Positions 13,459 to 26,727 of a stretch of DNA of 64,000 nt are shown piece after piece. A model generated the notes under the pieces. That model was not told the DNA's origin and did no database searches. It saw only the letters and a program-made list of their open reading frames with translations. Numbering within the stretch: the stretch's first letter is position 1; every line of letters starts with the position of its first letter. The translations under genes were made by a program, and so were the position numbers. Source of the DNA: a virus; IMG/VR virus record IMGVR_UViG_3300032213_001531, positions 1-64,000 of that record; one strand, given 5' to 3'.

Positions 13459-14505
13459 CTATTTTGAACTTATTTCTGCTACCCTTGCCTTTGAAAACTT
13501 AAGCATAGCGCTTCTGATTGGAGAGTATCCAAGGTCTTCAGCCTTCTTGCCACAAGTATCAAGCATAAAGTTAAAGAACTTTTTTACTGAATCATTCTTA
13601 GAGTTCTTTTCTTTATATGCTATTCCATATGTAAAAGTAGATATGTTATAAGATAGTTTATTAGGATTTTTATAGTTTATTTTAACTGCCCCGCTTTTAT
13701 CTGGAATAAAGTCTCCAAGGAATACTGATGCTGCTGAAACAGTTGGCTGCATAAATCTACCAGCCTCATTTTCAACTGAAATTGTTTTAAGATCTCTTGC
13801 ATATGATATTTCATTGTATCCAATAGACCCATTTGTTGTTCCCTGAACCATTGCAACTCCATTAGAGCCAGAAGCAGAGTTCATATAGACACCCTTGCTT
13901 ATGTCTCCAGGAAATGCATTGGCAAAGTTTTTGTTTCCTGGCTTTGTCCAGATTGTTGGAGCAACAGCATTAAGGTATGACGTAAAAACTTCTGATGTTC
14001 CAGAGCCATCAATGCGATATACAACTCTGATCTTTGTTGCTGGTATCTTAGGTAGTCTTGTTCCTATTAAGTTTTCTTTTAATATTTGTGGATCATTCCA
14101 CATAGTTATTTGTCCCGCAAAAACTTTAGCAAGTGTATCTTTGCTCATCTTAATTGTTATTTTATAGCCATCAAGTTTATAAATAATACCTACTGGGCCT
14201 GCAACCAAAGGAACATAAACAAATTCTTTTTGTGGTTTAATTTCTGATGCTGAGTACGGAACATCTGACATAGCAAAGTCCATTACTCCATTTGTAAGCA
14301 TATTTTTCCCAGCACCAGAACCAATGGCATTATAGCCAACAGAGTCTGCTCCTGATTTAGTAAATTCGATTCTACATCTGTCTATAAAATTAGCAGCAAA
14401 TGAGGATCCAGCACCTTGAAGGTTATCAGCATGTGAAGTAGTAATAAAAAAAGCATTGGATATTATTGCCAATGCTATGGGTAAAACAATGAATTTAGAT
14501 TTCAT
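13459..14505 (-). CDS. pstS: phosphate ABC transporter substrate-binding protein PstS
   Basis: The 348-residue protein has a signal peptide (hydrophobic core about residues 6-22, ending near SHA). The PstS phosphate-binding loops follow: QGAGSSFAA, IGSGAGKNMLT, DFAMSDVPYS and RIDGSGTSEVF. PstS captures phosphate outside the membrane for uptake. Phages of phosphate-poor waters often carry it. TACAAT (14512-14517) ends six bases before ATG 14505, consistent with leaderless expression. No other pst gene is present, so it must work with the host permease. Confidence 0.93.
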   Translation of the reverse strand: MKSKFIVLPIALAIISNAFFITTSHADNLQGAGSSFAANFIDRCRIEFTKSGADSVGYNAIGSGAGKNMLTNGVMDFAMSDVPYSASEIKPQKEFVYVPLVAGPVGIIYKLDGYKITIKMSKDTLAKVFAGQITMWNDPQILKENLIGTRLPKIPATKIRVVYRIDGSGTSEVFTSYLNAVAPTIWTKPGNKNFANAFPGDISKGVYMNSASGSNGVAMVQGTTNGSIGYNEISYARDLKTISVENEAGRFMQPTVSAASVFLGDFIPDKSGAVKINYKNPNKLSYNISTFTYGIAYKEKNSKNDSVKKFFNFMLDTCGKKAEDLGYSPIRSAMLKFSKARVAEISSK

Positions 14506-14658: not shown

Positions 14659-15072
14659 TTAGTTGATAGTAATAGTTTTAGGCTTCTTATCTTCAGGAAC
14701 AATACGATCTACGTTAATATGTAGCATACCATCCTTCATTTCAGCCCCAGTTACTTCCATATACTCTCCAAGAGCAAATGATCGTACAAACTTACGACCA
14801 GCAATGCCTTTGTGAACTACTTCAGCATCTGTTACTTCTAAAATCTCTCCCTTAATAATAAGAGTTCTATTGTCTACTGAAACATCAATGTCTTCCCTGG
14901 AAAATCCAGCAATAGCTAACGAAATCCTGTATGTATCTTCATCTAATCTAAGAAGATCATAAGGTGGATATGAGTGTGAATTTGTTTTATGTGCATTATT
15001 AAGACGGCCTAACTCTCTGTTAAAGCCAATAAAAAAAGGATCATTAAATAGATCCAGGGTTGTTGTTACCAT
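14659..15072 (-). CDS. small heat-shock protein, Hsp20/alpha-crystallin family
   Basis: The 137-residue product has the alpha-crystallin domain from about residue 38 (YPPYDLLRLDEDTYRISLA, AGFSREDIDVSVD) and ends with the KKPKTITIN strand. These ATP-independent chaperones hold unfolding proteins. Phage Hsp20 genes are common in aquatic phages. It has its own extended -10 promoter, a leader of about 50 bases and an AAGGGG site that can fold into a hairpin, which may make translation temperature-sensitive. Confidence 0.92.
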   Translation of the reverse strand: MVTTTLDLFNDPFFIGFNRELGRLNNAHKTNSHSYPPYDLLRLDEDTYRISLAIAGFSREDIDVSVDNRTLIIKGEILEVTDAEVVHKGIAGRKFVRSFALGEYMEVTGAEMKDGMLHINVDRIVPEDKKPKTITIN

Positions 15073-16433: not shown

Positions 16434-16715
16434 TTACCCCATTGTTAGTGACTGCCAGATACCTGCCCAGTCTTTTTTAGTCTTATGGCTATTAAATTCT
16501 TTAGATATGTTTCCATTTTCTATATAAATTCCGCCCCAAACTCCCCACTCTTTTTGAGAAACTCCAACAGCAAAGCATTGCTTTTTTACTGGACAAGAAG
16601 AACAAAGGTTATCAATAGCTAAGCGTAGATCAACCTCTTCTTCATATTTGTCAAAGAATAAGTTTGTGTCATACTCAAAACAAGCAGCATCTTCTTTCCA
16701 TTTATGCTTATTCAT
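16434..16715 (-). CDS. WhiB-family iron-sulfur transcription factor
   Basis: The 93-residue product has the WhiB cluster cysteines, AACFEYD then LCSSCPVKKQC, and the GVWGG turn that follows. WhiB proteins bind a 4Fe-4S cluster through four cysteines and, with the main sigma factor, control transcription; they are confined to Actinobacteria and their phages. I start at ATG 16715, which overlaps the upstream stop, rather than at TTG 16727. This is the best evidence for an actinobacterial host. Confidence 0.9.
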   Translation of the reverse strand: MNKHKWKEDAACFEYDTNLFFDKYEEEVDLRLAIDNLCSSCPVKKQCFAVGVSQKEWGVWGGIYIENGNISKEFNSHKTKKDWAGIWQSLTMG

Positions 16716-16926
16716 TATTTCTAACAAACTTATCGGGGATATTCCAACCAGACTCTGTTACTGGAAACTTTTTTTGCAAATACCATTTGCCTTTTACGAG
16801 TACACCATCTTTAGATGTTCTTCCAGATTCTGACATGTAGCGATTAATCACTGTCCATCCATCCCATATTAGAGATTTGTTGGATGCAACGATTGACTCC
16901 ATCTTTTCTAATGACTTGATATTCAT
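16708..16926 (-). CDS. hypothetical protein (72 aa)
   Basis: A soluble protein with GWTVINRYM, KGKWYLQKKFP and GWNIPDKFV, a pattern I associate with conserved small proteins of actinophages but cannot name. Its end overlaps the WhiB start by 8 bases, which suggests they are translated together. Confidence 0.65.
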   Translation of the reverse strand: MNIKSLEKMESIVASNKSLIWDGWTVINRYMSESGRTSKDGVLVKGKWYLQKKFPVTESGWNIPDKFVRNNE

Positions 16927-21780: not shown

Positions 21781-22548
21781 TTATGAGTAGATTTCAACTA
21801 ATCCATTAGACAAGTTGCTAAGGCTTACCCAACGTGCTGCAACTGCTGAAGTAGCAGATGAAGTGGTTAGGGGAATAAGACCAAAAACATTAGATACAAA
21901 GTTTGATCCATTAGTTTTTTGAAGATCTACAGAAAAATCAGTGTTTAAATCAAACACATTTCCAGGACTTGTAACTGAATTTGTATCAGTAATACATGCT
22001 GGATAATCTACATTTTTCTTAGGAGCATTTCCAGTTGAAATAAATACTGGAATACCCTTAGACTTAAGTACAGAAATCAAATTTCTAATTTCTTTATCTG
22101 CTAAATCTACTGTATATGGTGCTGAGGCACTTGGCATACAGGGTTTAGATGGATGGTTAAAAAATCTTGAAAATGATACAGCAGCAATTTGAGAAGAATT
22201 GGTATTTACCCAACGCAAAGCATCAATAAAAGTTGCTGGAGTTACATCTGATTGTGGGCTTGGTGAAGATCTTAAAGCAATAATCTTTAAGCTTGTATTT
22301 TGCTTTTTAGCAACTTCAACCATGGCATTTCCGTGATTTAAATTATCTGATAAAGAGCTTGGAAACTTTTTGACAACGTCTGTACAAGGTGCTTTGGTTG
22401 CAACTACTACACATAAAACATTTGAAGATGCTACTCTTGAATCAAAGTATGAGTCAATAATAACTAAAGACTTAGTTTCTGTTGCTTGTGATTGAATTGG
22501 TGTTACGATTGAAAACAATAATACAAATGCTGCTAATACTTTTTTCAT
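21781..22548 (-). CDS. secreted subtilase-like (S8) protein
   Basis: The 255-residue protein has a signal peptide (VLAAFVLLFSIVTPIQSQA). It then shows S8 landmarks: VIIDSYFD for the Asp, NHGNAMVEVA for the His, IPVFISTGNA for the oxyanion Asn, and TTSSATSAVAARW where the catalytic Ser should be. The Ser motif departs from the usual GTSxA, so activity is uncertain. An exported protease could act on the host surface or on other phage or cell-surface proteins. Ends just after tRNA-Asn. Confidence 0.72.
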   Translation of the reverse strand: MKKVLAAFVLLFSIVTPIQSQATETKSLVIIDSYFDSRVASSNVLCVVVATKAPCTDVVKKFPSSLSDNLNHGNAMVEVAKKQNTSLKIIALRSSPSPQSDVTPATFIDALRWVNTNSSQIAAVSFSRFFNHPSKPCMPSASAPYTVDLADKEIRNLISVLKSKGIPVFISTGNAPKKNVDYPACITDTNSVTSPGNVFDLNTDFSVDLQKTNGSNFVSNVFGLIPLTTSSATSAVAARWVSLSNLSNGLVEIYS

Positions 22549-22549
22549 T

Positions 22550-22732
22550 TTAATCCTTTATCCTAATTACTACTTGACATGGGTCGCCACCTTGGTCCCA
22601 CTCTTCTATTTCTTCTTCACTCATGTATGGATCGCCATCATGAGTATTACAGAACGGTTCTGTTATCCATCCCCGCTCAATTCCATTAGTTAGCCAGATG
22701 TTAAATTCATCATAGTCTTGATCAATAGTCAT
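22550..22732 (-). CDS. small conserved actinophage-type hypothetical protein (60 aa)
   Basis: An acidic protein with GIERGWITEPFCNTHDGDP and GGDPCQVVIRI, a pattern I recall from actinobacterial and actinophage small proteins. TATACT ends exactly six bases before ATG 22732, with TTGACA 17 bases further, so this is a clean leaderless gene. Function unknown. Confidence 0.75.
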   Translation of the reverse strand: MTIDQDYDEFNIWLTNGIERGWITEPFCNTHDGDPYMSEEEIEEWDQGGDPCQVVIRIKD

Positions 22733-22738
22733 ACTTTA

Positions 22739-22767
22739 AGTATAGTCCTAAACACTGACAATGTCAA
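22739..22767 (-). promoter_or_regulatory. leaderless-type promoter for gene ending at 22550
   Basis: On the minus strand TTGACA (22762-22767), a 17-base spacer and TATACT (22739-22744) end six bases before ATG 22732. The -35 overlaps the 3' end of the Ntn hydrolase gene. Confidence 0.75.
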
Positions 22768-23272
22768 CTGGACCAGCACAAGATGGTGAAAACTTAATTG
22801 CTGCTCCAACTGCTAATTGTAAACGTCTGCGTGGGTCTCTAGATTTTTCAGTTGCGTGAAGAGCACCGTAAGCATACTCAGCACCAGAACCCATTGCTAA
22901 ATAATCTAAATCATATTTTGATAAAGACATATCTGCGGAGCTGTGTTCATAAATTTGTCCTTTAATTGCAATAATTAAACCAAAGTCTGAATCTTTTCCT
23001 GTGTCAACCCACCAGTCTGTATAAAACTTTTTGAGTTGTTTGATAAACTTGGTTTGCATAAACTTATCTGTGTCACGAATATCTGGTATGTCTGGATTAA
23101 AATTATAACGAAGTCTTTCGCCATCCATAGAACCTGCATAGCCAATTAAATATGGACCAAGCTTCCAAACTTTTGGTGCAGTAAGTGATAGAATCGTTCC
23201 ATCATCTGAAGCACCACGATCACCAGCTAAATAAATTTTATTTTCATGTCTTACTACAGCGATACAAGTCAT
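22748..23272 (-). CDS. HslV/proteasome-beta-like Ntn hydrolase
   Basis: I start at ATG 23272, which has GGAGAGGG eight bases upstream, not at 23314. The mature N-terminus would then be TCIAVV. With Thr as residue 1, the Asp of AGDRG is residue 17 and the Lys of APKVWKL is residue 33, exactly the T1-D17-K33 catalytic set of HslV and proteasome beta subunits. GSGAEYAYGAL later matches the GSGG-x-YA-x-A helix. It probably forms a peptidase ring. No HslU or other unfoldase is seen in the window. Confidence 0.82.
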   Translation of the reverse strand: MTCIAVVRHENKIYLAGDRGASDDGTILSLTAPKVWKLGPYLIGYAGSMDGERLRYNFNPDIPDIRDTDKFMQTKFIKQLKKFYTDWWVDTGKDSDFGLIIAIKGQIYEHSSADMSLSKYDLDYLAMGSGAEYAYGALHATEKSRDPRRRLQLAVGAAIKFSPSCAGPVDIVSV

Positions 23273-23304
23273 GGCTAAAGCCCTCTCCAGATAGGTTATA
23301 TTTA

Positions 23305-23333
23305 AGTATACCATCCCTGGAAAGGGCTGTCAA
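23305..23333 (-). promoter_or_regulatory. consensus promoter for the Ntn hydrolase gene
   Basis: On the minus strand TTGACA (23328-23333), a 17-base spacer and TATACT (23305-23310). The leader is about 26 bases with a Shine-Dalgarno site, so this gene is translated conventionally. Confidence 0.75.
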
Positions 23334-23349
23334 ACATGCTTAATTATGA

Positions 23350-23637
23350 CTAATTAGCCTTTTTGTCTACTGATTTAAAAGCATCATTAATCTCTGCTAA
23401 TGTTAGCTTTCCATCGTCCAAAAAAGCTCTTGCCAGTCTTTCAATAACTGTGGCTACGCCTAATAGTCCTGCTAAGAATACAGCCTGCATAGTATCAATT
23501 CCTACTACTGCTCCTGCTCCTAAGACTGATAGTCCTGATGCTGCGAATACCGCTAAAATTCTCATAAGAATATTTGTTATTGCTTTTTGTGGGTGCTCTT
23601 TTTTAGGGGCTTCTACTACTATTTTTTTAGTTGCCAT
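23350..23637 (-). CDS. holin-like membrane protein (95 aa)
   Basis: The protein has a Lys-rich start, two hydrophobic helices (about 23-40 and 48-62) and the end pattern IERLARAFLDDGKLTLAEIN, common in actinophage membrane proteins annotated as holins. It is in an ATGA-style operon with two further small membrane proteins below the PA14 adhesin gene. Confidence 0.6.
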   Translation of the reverse strand: MATKKIVVEAPKKEHPQKAITNILMRILAVFAASGLSVLGAGAVVGIDTMQAVFLAGLLGVATVIERLARAFLDDGKLTLAEINDAFKSVDKKAN

Positions 23638-23849: not shown

Positions 23850-24019
23850 TCGTCATCATCTCTATTTCTAATTGGATAGGTAATTGCCCATGCAATCAAT
23901 GTACCTATAATTGCATAACCCACTATCGTCTTTGCCGAACCATCAAGGACAACCCAGGCAATAAACATACCTAGAAGTGTCCAAAGCTGATCTATCATAT
24001 CTTTTATTACTCTCATCAT
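23846..24019 (-). CDS. two-helix membrane protein (57 aa)
   Basis: ATG 24019 has GGAG six bases upstream and lies at the end of the PA14 gene. The 57-residue product has two helices (LLGMFIAWVVL and VGYAIIGTLIAWAI) and an acidic end (RNRDDDE). No family is recognised; holin or antiholin is possible. Confidence 0.6.
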   Translation of the reverse strand: MMRVIKDMIDQLWTLLGMFIAWVVLDGSAKTIVGYAIIGTLIAWAITYPIRNRDDDE

Positions 24020-26727
24020 GGTCTTCTCCTTACTCCCTTGGAATTGCCAGAGGCTCCTCCTCCACCTGATCCCCCACCAGAATTACCTCCTGATGATGAT
24101 CCTCCAGTGGATGTTGCAGCGCCAACAGCATTCATTGCTGCTCCTGCTGCCACTACTGTTGCAACAACCATGTTGGTTGCTTCTTCTCTTTCTCCTGGAG
24201 TCATATCTGCTCCAATACTTCCAAGTGCTGCTAATGCTGCTCCTGGGTCTGTAAATGCTGCTTCTAATAATGCACCTGCATCAGTAACTAACTCAACATT
24301 TGCAGCAACTTCAGCAGTAATAACAAGTGCCTCTCCGCTTTCAGATGTACGAACTTCAACTGGAGTTTCTTTTGGAAGGTCTTTATATTCAATTCCAGCA
24401 TCCTGAATTTGTGCTGCTGTTACATTTTCTCCAGATGAAACTGCTGCTGCGATAACAACTGTTGCAATTAAATCTTTTTGCTCAACAGTTAATGGGGCAT
24501 CTGATTGTTTAATTGCTTCTACAATACTTTTAACTTCTGCTTGTGTAACCTTACCATCAGAATTAATATTATCTAAAACCTTTTTAGTATCTTCTGCTGT
24601 AATCTTTCCGTCAGTCAAAGCCTTTTGCTCAGCAATCTTTCTATCTTCTTCTGCTTTTAATCTTGCAGCCTCAGCCTCTTTAGCCTTTTGCTCTGCTAAT
24701 ATTCTTGCATCTTCTGCTGCCTTATCTTTAGCAATTTGTGCAAGTCTATCTGCTTCAGCCTTAGCCTTTGCTTCTTCTTGTGCCTTTTTTATTGCCTCAA
24801 GTCGTGCATCTTCTTCTGCCTTTGCTTTGGCTTCAGCCTCTGCCTTTAATCTGTCTGCTTCTGCTTTGGCTGCAGCCTCTGCTGCTAGTCTATCTTTTTC
24901 TGCCTGAATTCTTGCTTCTTCTTCTGCTTTCTTTCTTTGCTCTTCAGCAATTCTGGCATCCTCTTCTGCTTTAGCCTTGGCTATTTCTGCAGCAATTCTT
25001 TCTTCTTCTGCTTTCTTTTCAGCAGCCTCTGCTGCTAAACGATCAGCCTCTGCTTTTGCTTCTGCCTCTGCTTTAATTCTTGCTGCTTCAACCTCTGCTG
25101 CAATGCGATCTGCTTCTTGCTTGGCCTCTATCTCTGCCTTAATTCTTGCAGCCTCAATTTCAGAGGCTATACGAGCAGCCTCAACCTGCGCTGCTATTCT
25201 TTCTGCTTCAATTCTTTCTGCTTCTGCTAGTCTTGCTACTTCTGCTAGTCTTGCTACTTCTGCTAACCTAGCAACCTCTGCTAACCTAGCAATTTCTGCA
25301 AGCCTAGCAACCTCTGTAAGTCGTGCTTCTTCAGCAAGCCTAGCAACTTCAGCCAATCTTGCAACCTCTGCTAATCTTGCTAATTCTGCAGTAACGGCTG
25401 CTATTCTTTCTGCTTCAAGCCTAGCAACCTCTGCTAACCTAGCAACCTCTGCTAGTCTTGCTACTTCTGCTAACCTAGCAATTTCTGCAAGCCTAGCAAC
25501 CTCTGCTAACCTAGCAATCTCTGTAAGTCTTGCTACTTCTGCTAACCTTGCTACTTCAGCAAGTCTTGCTACCTCAGCAAGTCTAGCGACCTCAGCAGTT
25601 GCTGCTGCAATTCTTGCCTCTTCTTGCTGTGCTGCTAACAACGCTGCTGCTTCTGCTTCAAGCCTAGCAACCTCTGCTAATCTAGCAACTTCCGCCAACC
25701 TAGCTACCTCTGCAAGTCTTGCTACCTCAGCCAATCTTGCTACCTCAGCCAATCTTGCTACCTCTGCAAGCCTTGCTTCTTCTGCTAATCGTGCAACTTC
25801 TGCGGTAGCCGCTGCGATTGCAGCTTCAGCAGCTGCCTGCTCTGCTGCAATTTCTTCTGCAGTCTTTCCAATTTTTAATGTAACAACATTTGAGTTTTCA
25901 GAGTATAGGGCTAATGTATCATTGTCTGATCTAATATGAAATGACCATACAGTCCCGCTTGGTCTTAGTGACTCAAGCAATGAGTGATCAATTGTTATTG
26001 TTGTATTAAGTGAATTCGGCCCACCAACATTTCCAGTTGCAATTCCCCATCCGTTACAGCCAGAACAATTAAAACTTATTGCATATCTTTCTGGTTGAGT
26101 ATTACCAGTATCTGGAGCATCCCAATCTAAAACCGTTGTAGTTGCACCATCTACTACTGTTAAATTTCTTGGTGGCCCTATTGTTTTAACTACTGGGGCT
26201 GCTTGTGAAGTAAAGGCTGATGCTGGAATGATCTGCATTGATCCAGATTGATCCCAGTTTAAAAATACGTTTGCTCCACCACCATTTTCATAGTACATTA
26301 ATTCTATTGTTTTAGGGACTCCTGCTGTAAAAGATACTGGGGCACTTGTAGTTCCTCCCCCACCCTTGTCTCTCCAGTCATCTGCCACTAAGACTCCATC
26401 AATATATAGCCTTGTACCATCGTCTGCTGTTGCTAAAAATGATATGTTTTGAGTAGAATCGCTTCTAACTGAACCAGTAAACCGTACGATAACATCCTCT
26501 GAAGGGCCACCTAATACACTACCAGAACCCCACTGGAAGTCAATGTTAGGTACATTTGTAGTTACTACTGGAGAGGCTCCCTGGGGTATATAAGGGGCAT
26601 TGTTCTGTCCTAGTACATTGTAAACCTGGGCAGTTAAGCCTTCTGCAGCATGGGCTTTATCAATACCTACAATTAGGGGAAATAATGCTAGGGATAACAC
26701 AAGAAATATGCGTAAAAACTTTTTCAT
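24016..26727 (-). CDS. secreted PA14-domain adhesin with long helical repeats
   Basis: A 903-residue protein: signal peptide (FLRIFLVLSLALFPLIVG, ending near HA), a PA14 domain about 28-180 (FLATADDGTRLYIDGVLV, ELMYYENGGGANVFLNW), a fibronectin-like segment about 180-290, then some 190 residues built of the six-residue unit ARLAEV, an Ala/Glu/Lys/Arg helix to about 700, a small EF-hand-like DGKVTQAEVK segment, and a Gly/Ser tail. PA14 binds carbohydrates. A surface fibre or cell-surface adhesin is likely. It has its own extended -10 promoter (TATAAT 26763-26768). Confidence 0.75.
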   Translation of the reverse strand: MKKFLRIFLVLSLALFPLIVGIDKAHAAEGLTAQVYNVLGQNNAPYIPQGASPVVTTNVPNIDFQWGSGSVLGGPSEDVIVRFTGSVRSDSTQNISFLATADDGTRLYIDGVLVADDWRDKGGGGTTSAPVSFTAGVPKTIELMYYENGGGANVFLNWDQSGSMQIIPASAFTSQAAPVVKTIGPPRNLTVVDGATTTVLDWDAPDTGNTQPERYAISFNCSGCNGWGIATGNVGGPNSLNTTITIDHSLLESLRPSGTVWSFHIRSDNDTLALYSENSNVVTLKIGKTAEEIAAEQAAAEAAIAAATAEVARLAEEARLAEVARLAEVARLAEVARLAEVARLAEVARLAEVARLEAEAAALLAAQQEEARIAAATAEVARLAEVARLAEVARLAEVARLTEIARLAEVARLAEIARLAEVARLAEVARLAEVARLEAERIAAVTAELARLAEVARLAEVARLAEEARLTEVARLAEIARLAEVARLAEVARLAEVARLAEAERIEAERIAAQVEAARIASEIEAARIKAEIEAKQEADRIAAEVEAARIKAEAEAKAEADRLAAEAAEKKAEEERIAAEIAKAKAEEDARIAEEQRKKAEEEARIQAEKDRLAAEAAAKAEADRLKAEAEAKAKAEEDARLEAIKKAQEEAKAKAEADRLAQIAKDKAAEDARILAEQKAKEAEAARLKAEEDRKIAEQKALTDGKITAEDTKKVLDNINSDGKVTQAEVKSIVEAIKQSDAPLTVEQKDLIATVVIAAAVSSGENVTAAQIQDAGIEYKDLPKETPVEVRTSESGEALVITAEVAANVELVTDAGALLEAAFTDPGAALAALGSIGADMTPGEREEATNMVVATVVAAGAAMNAVGAATSTGGSSSGGNSGGGSGGGGASGNSKGVRRRP
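25225..25810 (-). repeat. 18-bp coding tandem repeats (ARLAEV units)
   Basis: Three blocks of an 18-base unit encode ARLAEV with minor variants (ARLAEI, ARLTEV, ARLAEE). Codons vary between units while residues are kept, so the repeat is selected at the protein level. The region can expand or shrink by recombination. Confidence 0.85.

What the first reader, a model, noticed from the sequence alone, without database searches (positions are those of the whole stretch)
22748..23272. Phage-encoded HslV/proteasome-like Ntn hydrolase with exact catalytic spacing
After Met removal Thr is residue 1, with Asp17 and Lys33 at the HslV/proteasome positions and GSGAEYA downstream. It has its own consensus promoter. 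HslV-like peptidases in phages are unusual, and no unfoldase partner is seen, so it may use a host ATPase or act alone, for example in prohead processing or host protein removal.
Basis: partly seen in the sequence, partly recalled or inferred. Interest (0 to 1): 0.7.

Follow-up and report, generated by a model that had tools for sequence, protein, structure and literature searches.

The report
Proteasome-like peptidase in freshwater actinophages
This virus of (probably) freshwater actinobacteria carries a gene for a small relative of the proteasome's cutting subunit; such genes are already known in many bacterial viruses, but this one belongs to a separate branch whose activity and purpose nobody has tested.

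Summary
The gene is on the minus strand (22748-23272); Thr1, Asp17, Lys33, GSG and a TTGACA-17-TATACT promoter are all there, and the promoter is conserved in 130 of 136 relatives. AlphaFold2 (pLDDT 92.6) gives a proteasome-like Ntn fold, closest to BPH (TM 0.77), then HslV. It is not HslV proper: TIGR03692 25.6 bits versus a 157.75 cut-off, no AAA+ gene in the 105-kb record.

'Unusual in phages' is wrong: PHROG 1040 covers it, 160 phage records and at least 404 IMG/VR stretches hold relatives, and Fuchs et al. 2021 (PMC8665760) described phage subfamilies PPH and AAH. Prohead processing is unlikely: the genome has its own S78 protease between portal and capsid genes.

What is new: the protein lies in a well-supported freshwater-phage clade (98/98) outside, and sister to, AAH. 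Its sister lineage carries Glu17 instead of Asp17 in 60 of 63 loci. It is an accessory gene (14 of 21 terminase-anchored loci) under purifying selection (dN/dS 0.05). Its last codons double as the -35 box of a leaderless promoter for a 60-residue downstream gene. Most likely an ATPase-independent, ring-forming threonine peptidase; substrate and oligomer are inference.

The parts
22748..23272 (-). CDS of a 174-aa proteasome-like Ntn hydrolase (Met + Thr1; Asp17, Lys33, AGS oxyanion loop, GSG; Ser and Cys at the Asp166 and Ser169 positions)
23281..23288 (-). Shine-Dalgarno GGAGAGGG, 8 nt before ATG 23272
   Evidence: sequence
23305..23333 (-). Consensus promoter TTGACA-N17-TATACT of the Ntn gene, conserved in 130/136 relatives
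22739..22767 (-). Promoter of the downstream 60-aa gene; -35 TTGACA (22767-22762) lies inside the Ntn GP(V/I)D codons, -10 TATACT ends 6 nt before ATG 22732 (predicted leaderless mRNA)
22550..22732 (-). Conserved 60-aa acidic protein of unknown fold (CNTHDG...GGDPC), directly downstream of Ntn in most relatives; also present where Ntn is absent
21781..22548 (-). Secreted subtilase-like protein (D/HG/GN/S motifs; the window copy has no Pfam hit, relatives hit PF00082)
23350..23637 (-). Holin-like transmembrane protein upstream of the Ntn gene
14659..15072 (-). Hsp20/IbpA-type small heat-shock protein; in most relatives 1-3 kb downstream of Ntn

Best explanation
A phage-encoded threonine peptidase of the proteasome-like family, from a freshwater-actinophage clade that is sister to AAH within the BPH/HslV-like 'group I'. 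Host methionine aminopeptidase exposes Thr1; Lys33 and Asp17 activate Thr1; the Gly of AGS forms the oxyanion hole. The subunits probably stack into a small double ring like BPH and HslV and cut short or unfolded polypeptides without a dedicated ATPase. Transcription comes from its own housekeeping-type promoter, so it probably does not depend on a phage late operon. Likely role: an accessory, dispensable aid to infection that clears or trims unfolded or specific host proteins, perhaps alongside the phage Hsp20. Shown: fold prediction, residue conservation, promoter, purifying selection, accessory status. Inferred: activity, ring, substrate, timing, Hsp20 link.
For: PHROG 1040 E 1.7e-21. AF2 pLDDT 92.6; Foldseek best PDB hits are BPH 5ovt/5ovs (E 9.5e-13, TM 0.77), then HslV. 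Thr1/Asp17/Lys33 conserved in the window lineage. dN/dS median 0.054. Tree: window lineage plus sister lineage 98/98, next to the AAH clade; hhalign to AAH 2.9e-15, BPH 1.9e-5, HslV 8e-4. No AAA+ in the record. BPH, the nearest solved homolog, is a tetradecameric double ring with no known unfoldase and has Met removed to expose Thr1 (PMC5777263). Promoter conserved. Host phylum: WhiB gene, nearest polymerase and terminase in Streptomyces phages.
Against: No activity or oligomer data exist for this protein, and even for purified BPH the activity is in question (PMC5777263). The Asp166 and Ser169 positions are Ser and Cys. The sister lineage keeps Glu17, which may lower or change activity. The gene is missing from 7 of 21 terminase-anchored relatives. 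The Hsp20 link is only loose synteny, and in this genome the two genes are 8 kb apart.
Confidence: 0.5

Rival explanations
1. True HslV-type peptidase that borrows a host AAA+ unfoldase (HslU, ClpX-like or Mpa-like).
For: Fold and Thr1 geometry match HslV; no phage unfoldase.
Against: 25.6 bits against the 157.75 HslV cut-off; Table 1 of PMC8665760 marks no HslV in Actinobacteria; the related BPH lost its HslU-contact residues (PMC5777263).
Confidence: 0.13
2. Specific processing enzyme or takeover protease: it cuts one or a few host or phage proteins (a regulator or defence factor), or joins peptides as connectase does.
For: The slot upstream of the 60-aa gene is variable; in two Ntn-less relatives it holds an IrrE-like M78 metallopeptidase instead, a type of domain known to cleave regulators (general knowledge). 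Connectase shows that this fold can be a ligase (PMC8665760). Own promoter.
Against: No target known; only 2 of 7 Ntn-less loci have the metallopeptidase, the others have unrelated genes or none.
Confidence: 0.22
3. Catalytically weak or non-proteolytic scaffold; the active site is eroding, as Glu17 in the sister lineage and the changed Asp166/Ser169 positions suggest.
For: Glu17 in 60/63 sister loci; Ser and Cys at the 166 and 169 positions.
Against: Thr1 and Lys33 are invariant in both lineages; Asp17 invariant in the window lineage; strong purifying selection.
Confidence: 0.1
4. Prohead (capsid maturation) protease.
Against: The genome has a Peptidase_S78 gene directly between the portal and capsid genes; the Ntn gene lies far away beside the holin-like gene and is absent from some relatives.
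Confidence: 0.03
5. Lysis-stage factor, because it sits between a holin-like gene and the endolysin in this genome.
For: Gene order.
Against: No signal peptide or membrane segment is apparent in the sequence; the endolysin lies on either side of it in relatives; the gene has its own housekeeping-type promoter.
Confidence: 0.07

Closest known systems
PHROG 1040 'peptidase HslV family'
   Same: Full-length profile match, E 1.7e-21; members are phage Ntn hydrolases
   Different: Covers very diverged phage members; the window clade is about 26-33% identical to those compared
[quoted passage not shown] Fuchs, Alva, Lupas 2021)
   Same: Best profile relative (hhalign 2.9e-15), similar length, Ser at the 166 position, phages implicated in its spread
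   Different: Window clade lies outside AAH in the tree; lacks the SFRMGQ motif, keeps AGS and GSG where the AAH sequences compared have TTS/TSS and (nearly all) GCG
BPH (betaproteobacterial proteasome homolog)
   Same: Closest solved fold (5ovt/5ovs/5ovu), same Thr1/Asp17/Lys set, similar C-terminal P(V/I)D
   Different: 19-25% identity; BPH has a long acidic pore loop and Asp166/Ser169
HslV
   Same: Fold, Thr1/Asp17/Lys33, GSG
   Different: Far below the equivalog score cut-off; no HslU in the record
[quoted passage not shown]
   Same: Phage-borne member of the same superfamily
   Different: PPH is about 140 aa and lacks helix H2; the window protein is 174 aa with both helices predicted; hhalign to a PPH-like protein is not significant

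Membership tests
Proteasome-like Ntn hydrolases | S1-S11 sandwich fold with flanking helices | tested here: met
   AF2 pLDDT 92.6, Foldseek TM 0.77 to BPH
Proteasome-like Ntn hydrolases | Thr1, Asp17, Lys33 and oxyanion Gly, conserved in relatives | tested here: met
   Met for the window lineage; sister lineage has Glu17 in 60/63
Proteasome-like Ntn hydrolases | Asp166 and Ser169 supporting residues | tested here: not met
   Ser and Cys aligned with BPH Asp and Ser; AAH also lacks Asp166. Not a required feature in the definition of Fuchs et al.
PHROG 1040 | Profile match over the full length | tested here: met
   E 1.7e-21, residues 1-173
HslV | TIGR03692 score at or above 157.75 bits | tested here: not met
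   25.6 bits
HslV | HslU partner encoded alongside | tested here: not met
   No PF07724 or PF00004 in the 105-kb record, which may be incomplete
HslV | ATPase-activated dodecamer | not testable with these tools
   -
AAH | Falls inside the AAH clade | tested here: not met
   Sister clade, not inside; support 98/98 for the window clade, 90/76 for the joint group. AAH references were picked here by homology, not taken from the authors' alignment
PPH | About 140 aa, no H2 | tested here: not met
   174 aa, helices 50-57 and 68-86; hhalign E 0.18
BPH | Long acidic pore loop; heptameric double ring | tested here: inconclusive
   Loop between H2 and the next strand is only about 11 residues; oligomer not testable
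Peptidase_S78 prohead protease | S78 fold, located in the capsid module | tested here: not met
   A separate S78 gene is there
Active peptidase | Thr1-dependent cleavage | not testable with these tools
   -

The most novel reading that the evidence does not exclude
Abundant freshwater actinophages carry their own minimal, ATPase-independent proteasome-like chamber, in a subfamily distinct from AAH, BPH and HslV, with a naturally occurring Asp17-to-Glu active-site lineage that may have a different chemistry (slower hydrolysis or peptide ligation), used together with a phage Hsp20 to remove host proteins.
Probability: 0.2. Interest if true: 0.65.

Novelty: new variant of a known kind. Interest (0 to 1): 0.42.

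Why it matters
Fuchs et al. found no actinobacteria-specific phage with AAH and no function for any phage proteasome homolog. This clade gives a near case (a sister of AAH in a phage lineage with WhiB and Streptomyces-phage-like core genes), with hundreds of natural variants, a built-in active-site contrast (Asp17 versus Glu17), and natural knock-outs (related phages lacking the gene). That makes the function testable. The embedded leaderless promoter is a clean example of regulatory DNA shaping the C-terminal codons of an enzyme.

Tried and rejected
1) An obligate partnership with the downstream 60-aa gene looked strong when anchored on close relatives (74/74 and 117/124) but failed the terminase-anchored control: the 60-aa gene is in 21/21 loci, Ntn in 14/21. 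2) Prohead protease: rejected, S78 present. 3) HslV proper: rejected. 4) PPH: rejected on length, helices and hhalign. 5) The 60-aa protein's fold: AF2 pLDDT 64, uninformative. 6) A mixed 14-sequence alignment was too divergent for a collection scan; a scan of genome contigs with the window clade found no cellular relative, and of 396 Actinomycetota genomes only the one known Streptomyces AAH carrier matched. 8) Papers: no experimental study of a phage HslV/AAH protein found in the held library.

Full report
WHAT IS THERE. The finding's interval holds an ORF on the minus strand (22748-23272, 174 aa); the plus strand there is closed. The start is ATG 23272, with a Shine-Dalgarno GGAGAGGG. The promoter TTGACA-N17-TATACT lies at 23333-23305.

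FAMILY. PHROG 1040 'peptidase HslV family' matches at 1.7e-21 over the full length. Pfam Proteasome is just under its cut-off (19.4 against 22.4 bits) and HslV TIGR03692 far under (25.6 against 157.75). The best PDB sequence hits are BPH and HslV. AlphaFold2 on a 34-sequence alignment gives pLDDT 92.6, and Foldseek ranks BPH first (E 9.5e-13, TM 0.77), then HslV, then proteasome beta; viral models include many phage Ntn proteins, among them one of Gordonia phage Daredevil.

HOW COMMON. tblastn finds relatives in 160 INPHARED records, and one IMG/VR scan confirmed 404 stretches. Fuchs, Alva and Lupas 2021 (PMC8665760) already described phage proteasome homologs (PPH, AAH) and stated that no actinobacteria-specific phage with AAH could be found and that no context hinted at function. 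So 'unusual in phages' is wrong, but the function is truly open.

HOST. The nearest DNA polymerase and terminase are in large Streptomyces phages (53-57% identity); the window has a WhiB gene (PF02467, 6.5e-12), a family typical of Actinobacteria and their phages (general knowledge); several genes have leaderless-type promoters, common in Actinobacteria (PMC3160421). G+C is 36.7%. An AT-rich freshwater actinobacterium is the likely host; inferred, not shown.

PLACE IN THE FAMILY. Two abundant viral lineages are close: the window lineage (lin1, 80 loci) and a sister about 51% identical (lin2, 63 loci analysed). They form one clade (98/98) beside a clade of cellular and viral AAH proteins (90/76). 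hhalign: AAH 2.9e-15, BPH 1.9e-5, HslV 8e-4, PPH-like 0.18. The clade keeps AGS and GSG (AGT or SGT in lin2), where the AAH sequences have TTS/TSS and nearly always GCG, and lacks the AAH SFRMGQ motif. Both have Ser where proteasome and BPH have Asp166. The tree has long branches at BPH and HslV, and AAH references were chosen here by homology, so 'sister of AAH' is supported but not final.

ACTIVE SITE. T1 and K33 are invariant in both lineages. Position 17 is Asp in all lin1 loci checked (79/79) but Glu in 60/63 lin2 loci. dN/dS medians are 0.054 (lin1) and 0.12 (lin2), so both are maintained. What Glu17 does is unknown.

PROMOTERS. The Ntn promoter is retained in 72/75 and 58/61 loci with diverging spacers; same-size in-gene windows gave none. 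Downstream, a 60-aa gene (22550-22732) has a promoter whose -35 TTGACA is built from the codons of the Ntn GP(V/I)D motif and whose -10 TATACT ends 6 nt before the ATG, so its mRNA should be leaderless. Among 110 loci with the two genes adjacent, 95 have both the TTGAC in the codons and the -10 at the right place, 15 have neither, none is mixed. TTGAC occurs there in 113/139, against roughly 0.18 expected from the same genes' codon usage (own arithmetic). The loci are related, so this is not 110 independent events.

CONTEXT. Upstream lie holin-like and other small membrane proteins; downstream the 60-aa gene, a secreted subtilase-like protein (relatives PF00082 3.5e-17), tRNA-Asn, HNH-like and CHAP endolysin genes. 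An Hsp20 gene (PF00011) follows Ntn within a few kb in most relatives. The terminase-anchored control shows Ntn is accessory: 14 of 21 loci, while the 60-aa gene is in all 21. Without Ntn the slot holds an IrrE-like M78 metallopeptidase (2 loci), an HNH gene, what reads as a ribonucleotide reductase small subunit (not tested), an unassigned gene, or nothing. Capsid processing has its own S78 protease; no AAA+ unfoldase is found.

MECHANISM. Shown: fold (by prediction), catalytic residues, conservation, promoter, accessory status. Inferred: Met removal, ring, ATP-independent cleavage of unfolded or specific proteins, possible help from Hsp20. BPH is the model: a tetradecamer with no known ATPase, Thr1 labelled by epoxomicin (PMC5777263).

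VERDICT. A real, correctly spotted enzyme of a known kind, in a distinct branch. Interest 0.42: the family is known, but the branch, the Glu17 lineage and the natural presence/absence pattern make the open question of phage proteasome homologs testable.

Noticed in passing
22739-22767 and 22550-22732 (minus): A leaderless promoter for a conserved 60-aa gene is embedded in the last codons of the Ntn gene; presence of TTGAC in the codons and of the -10 box go together in 110 of 110 adjacent loci.
   Followed up: yes
L120-L184 (sister lineage): Natural Asp17-to-Glu replacement at the catalytic triad in 60 of 63 loci, with Thr1 and Lys33 kept.
   Followed up: partly
L296, L308, L310, L318, L320, L338, L348: Slot between the holin-like region and the 60-aa gene is variable; two relatives carry an IrrE-like M78 metallopeptidase instead of Ntn.
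   Followed up: partly
21781-22548 (minus): Secreted subtilase-like protein next door; the window copy has drifted below Pfam detection but relatives match PF00082.
   Followed up: partly
14659-15072 (minus): Phage-encoded Hsp20 (PF00011). A Rhizobium etli plasmid also has an Hsp20 gene about 2 kb from its AAH gene (L099).
   Followed up: partly
16434-16727 (minus): WhiB transcription factor gene, pointing to an actinobacterial host.
   Followed up: partly
13459-14505 (minus): PstS-like phosphate-binding protein (PBP superfamily domain), a known kind of phage auxiliary gene.
   Followed up: no
L085, L088, L089, L266, L270, L273, L274: In unrelated phages the homolog sits near nucleotide-metabolism genes (thyA/thyX, dfr, RNR, MazG, thymidylate kinase) and often PhoH; Fuchs et al. 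reported no context pattern. Not tested against a null.
   Followed up: partly
L085 5001-5984; L087 near its end; L273 4001-4867: Some Vibrio phage homologs carry long C-terminal extensions, and Aeromonas phage 2L372X has a second, PPH-like Ntn gene directly after the first.
   Followed up: no
L107-L114: AAH-type genes in viral contigs of up to 73% G+C, close to Streptomyces and Actinomadura AAH: candidates for the actinobacterial AAH phages that Fuchs et al. did not find.
   Followed up: partly
24016-26727 (minus): Secreted PA14-like protein with a long run of RLAEVA repeats (PA14 by eye, not tested).
   Followed up: no
23350-23637 (minus): Matches phrog_26427 labelled 'nuclease' although the sequence looks like a holin-type membrane protein; the PHROG label is probably wrong.
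   Followed up: no
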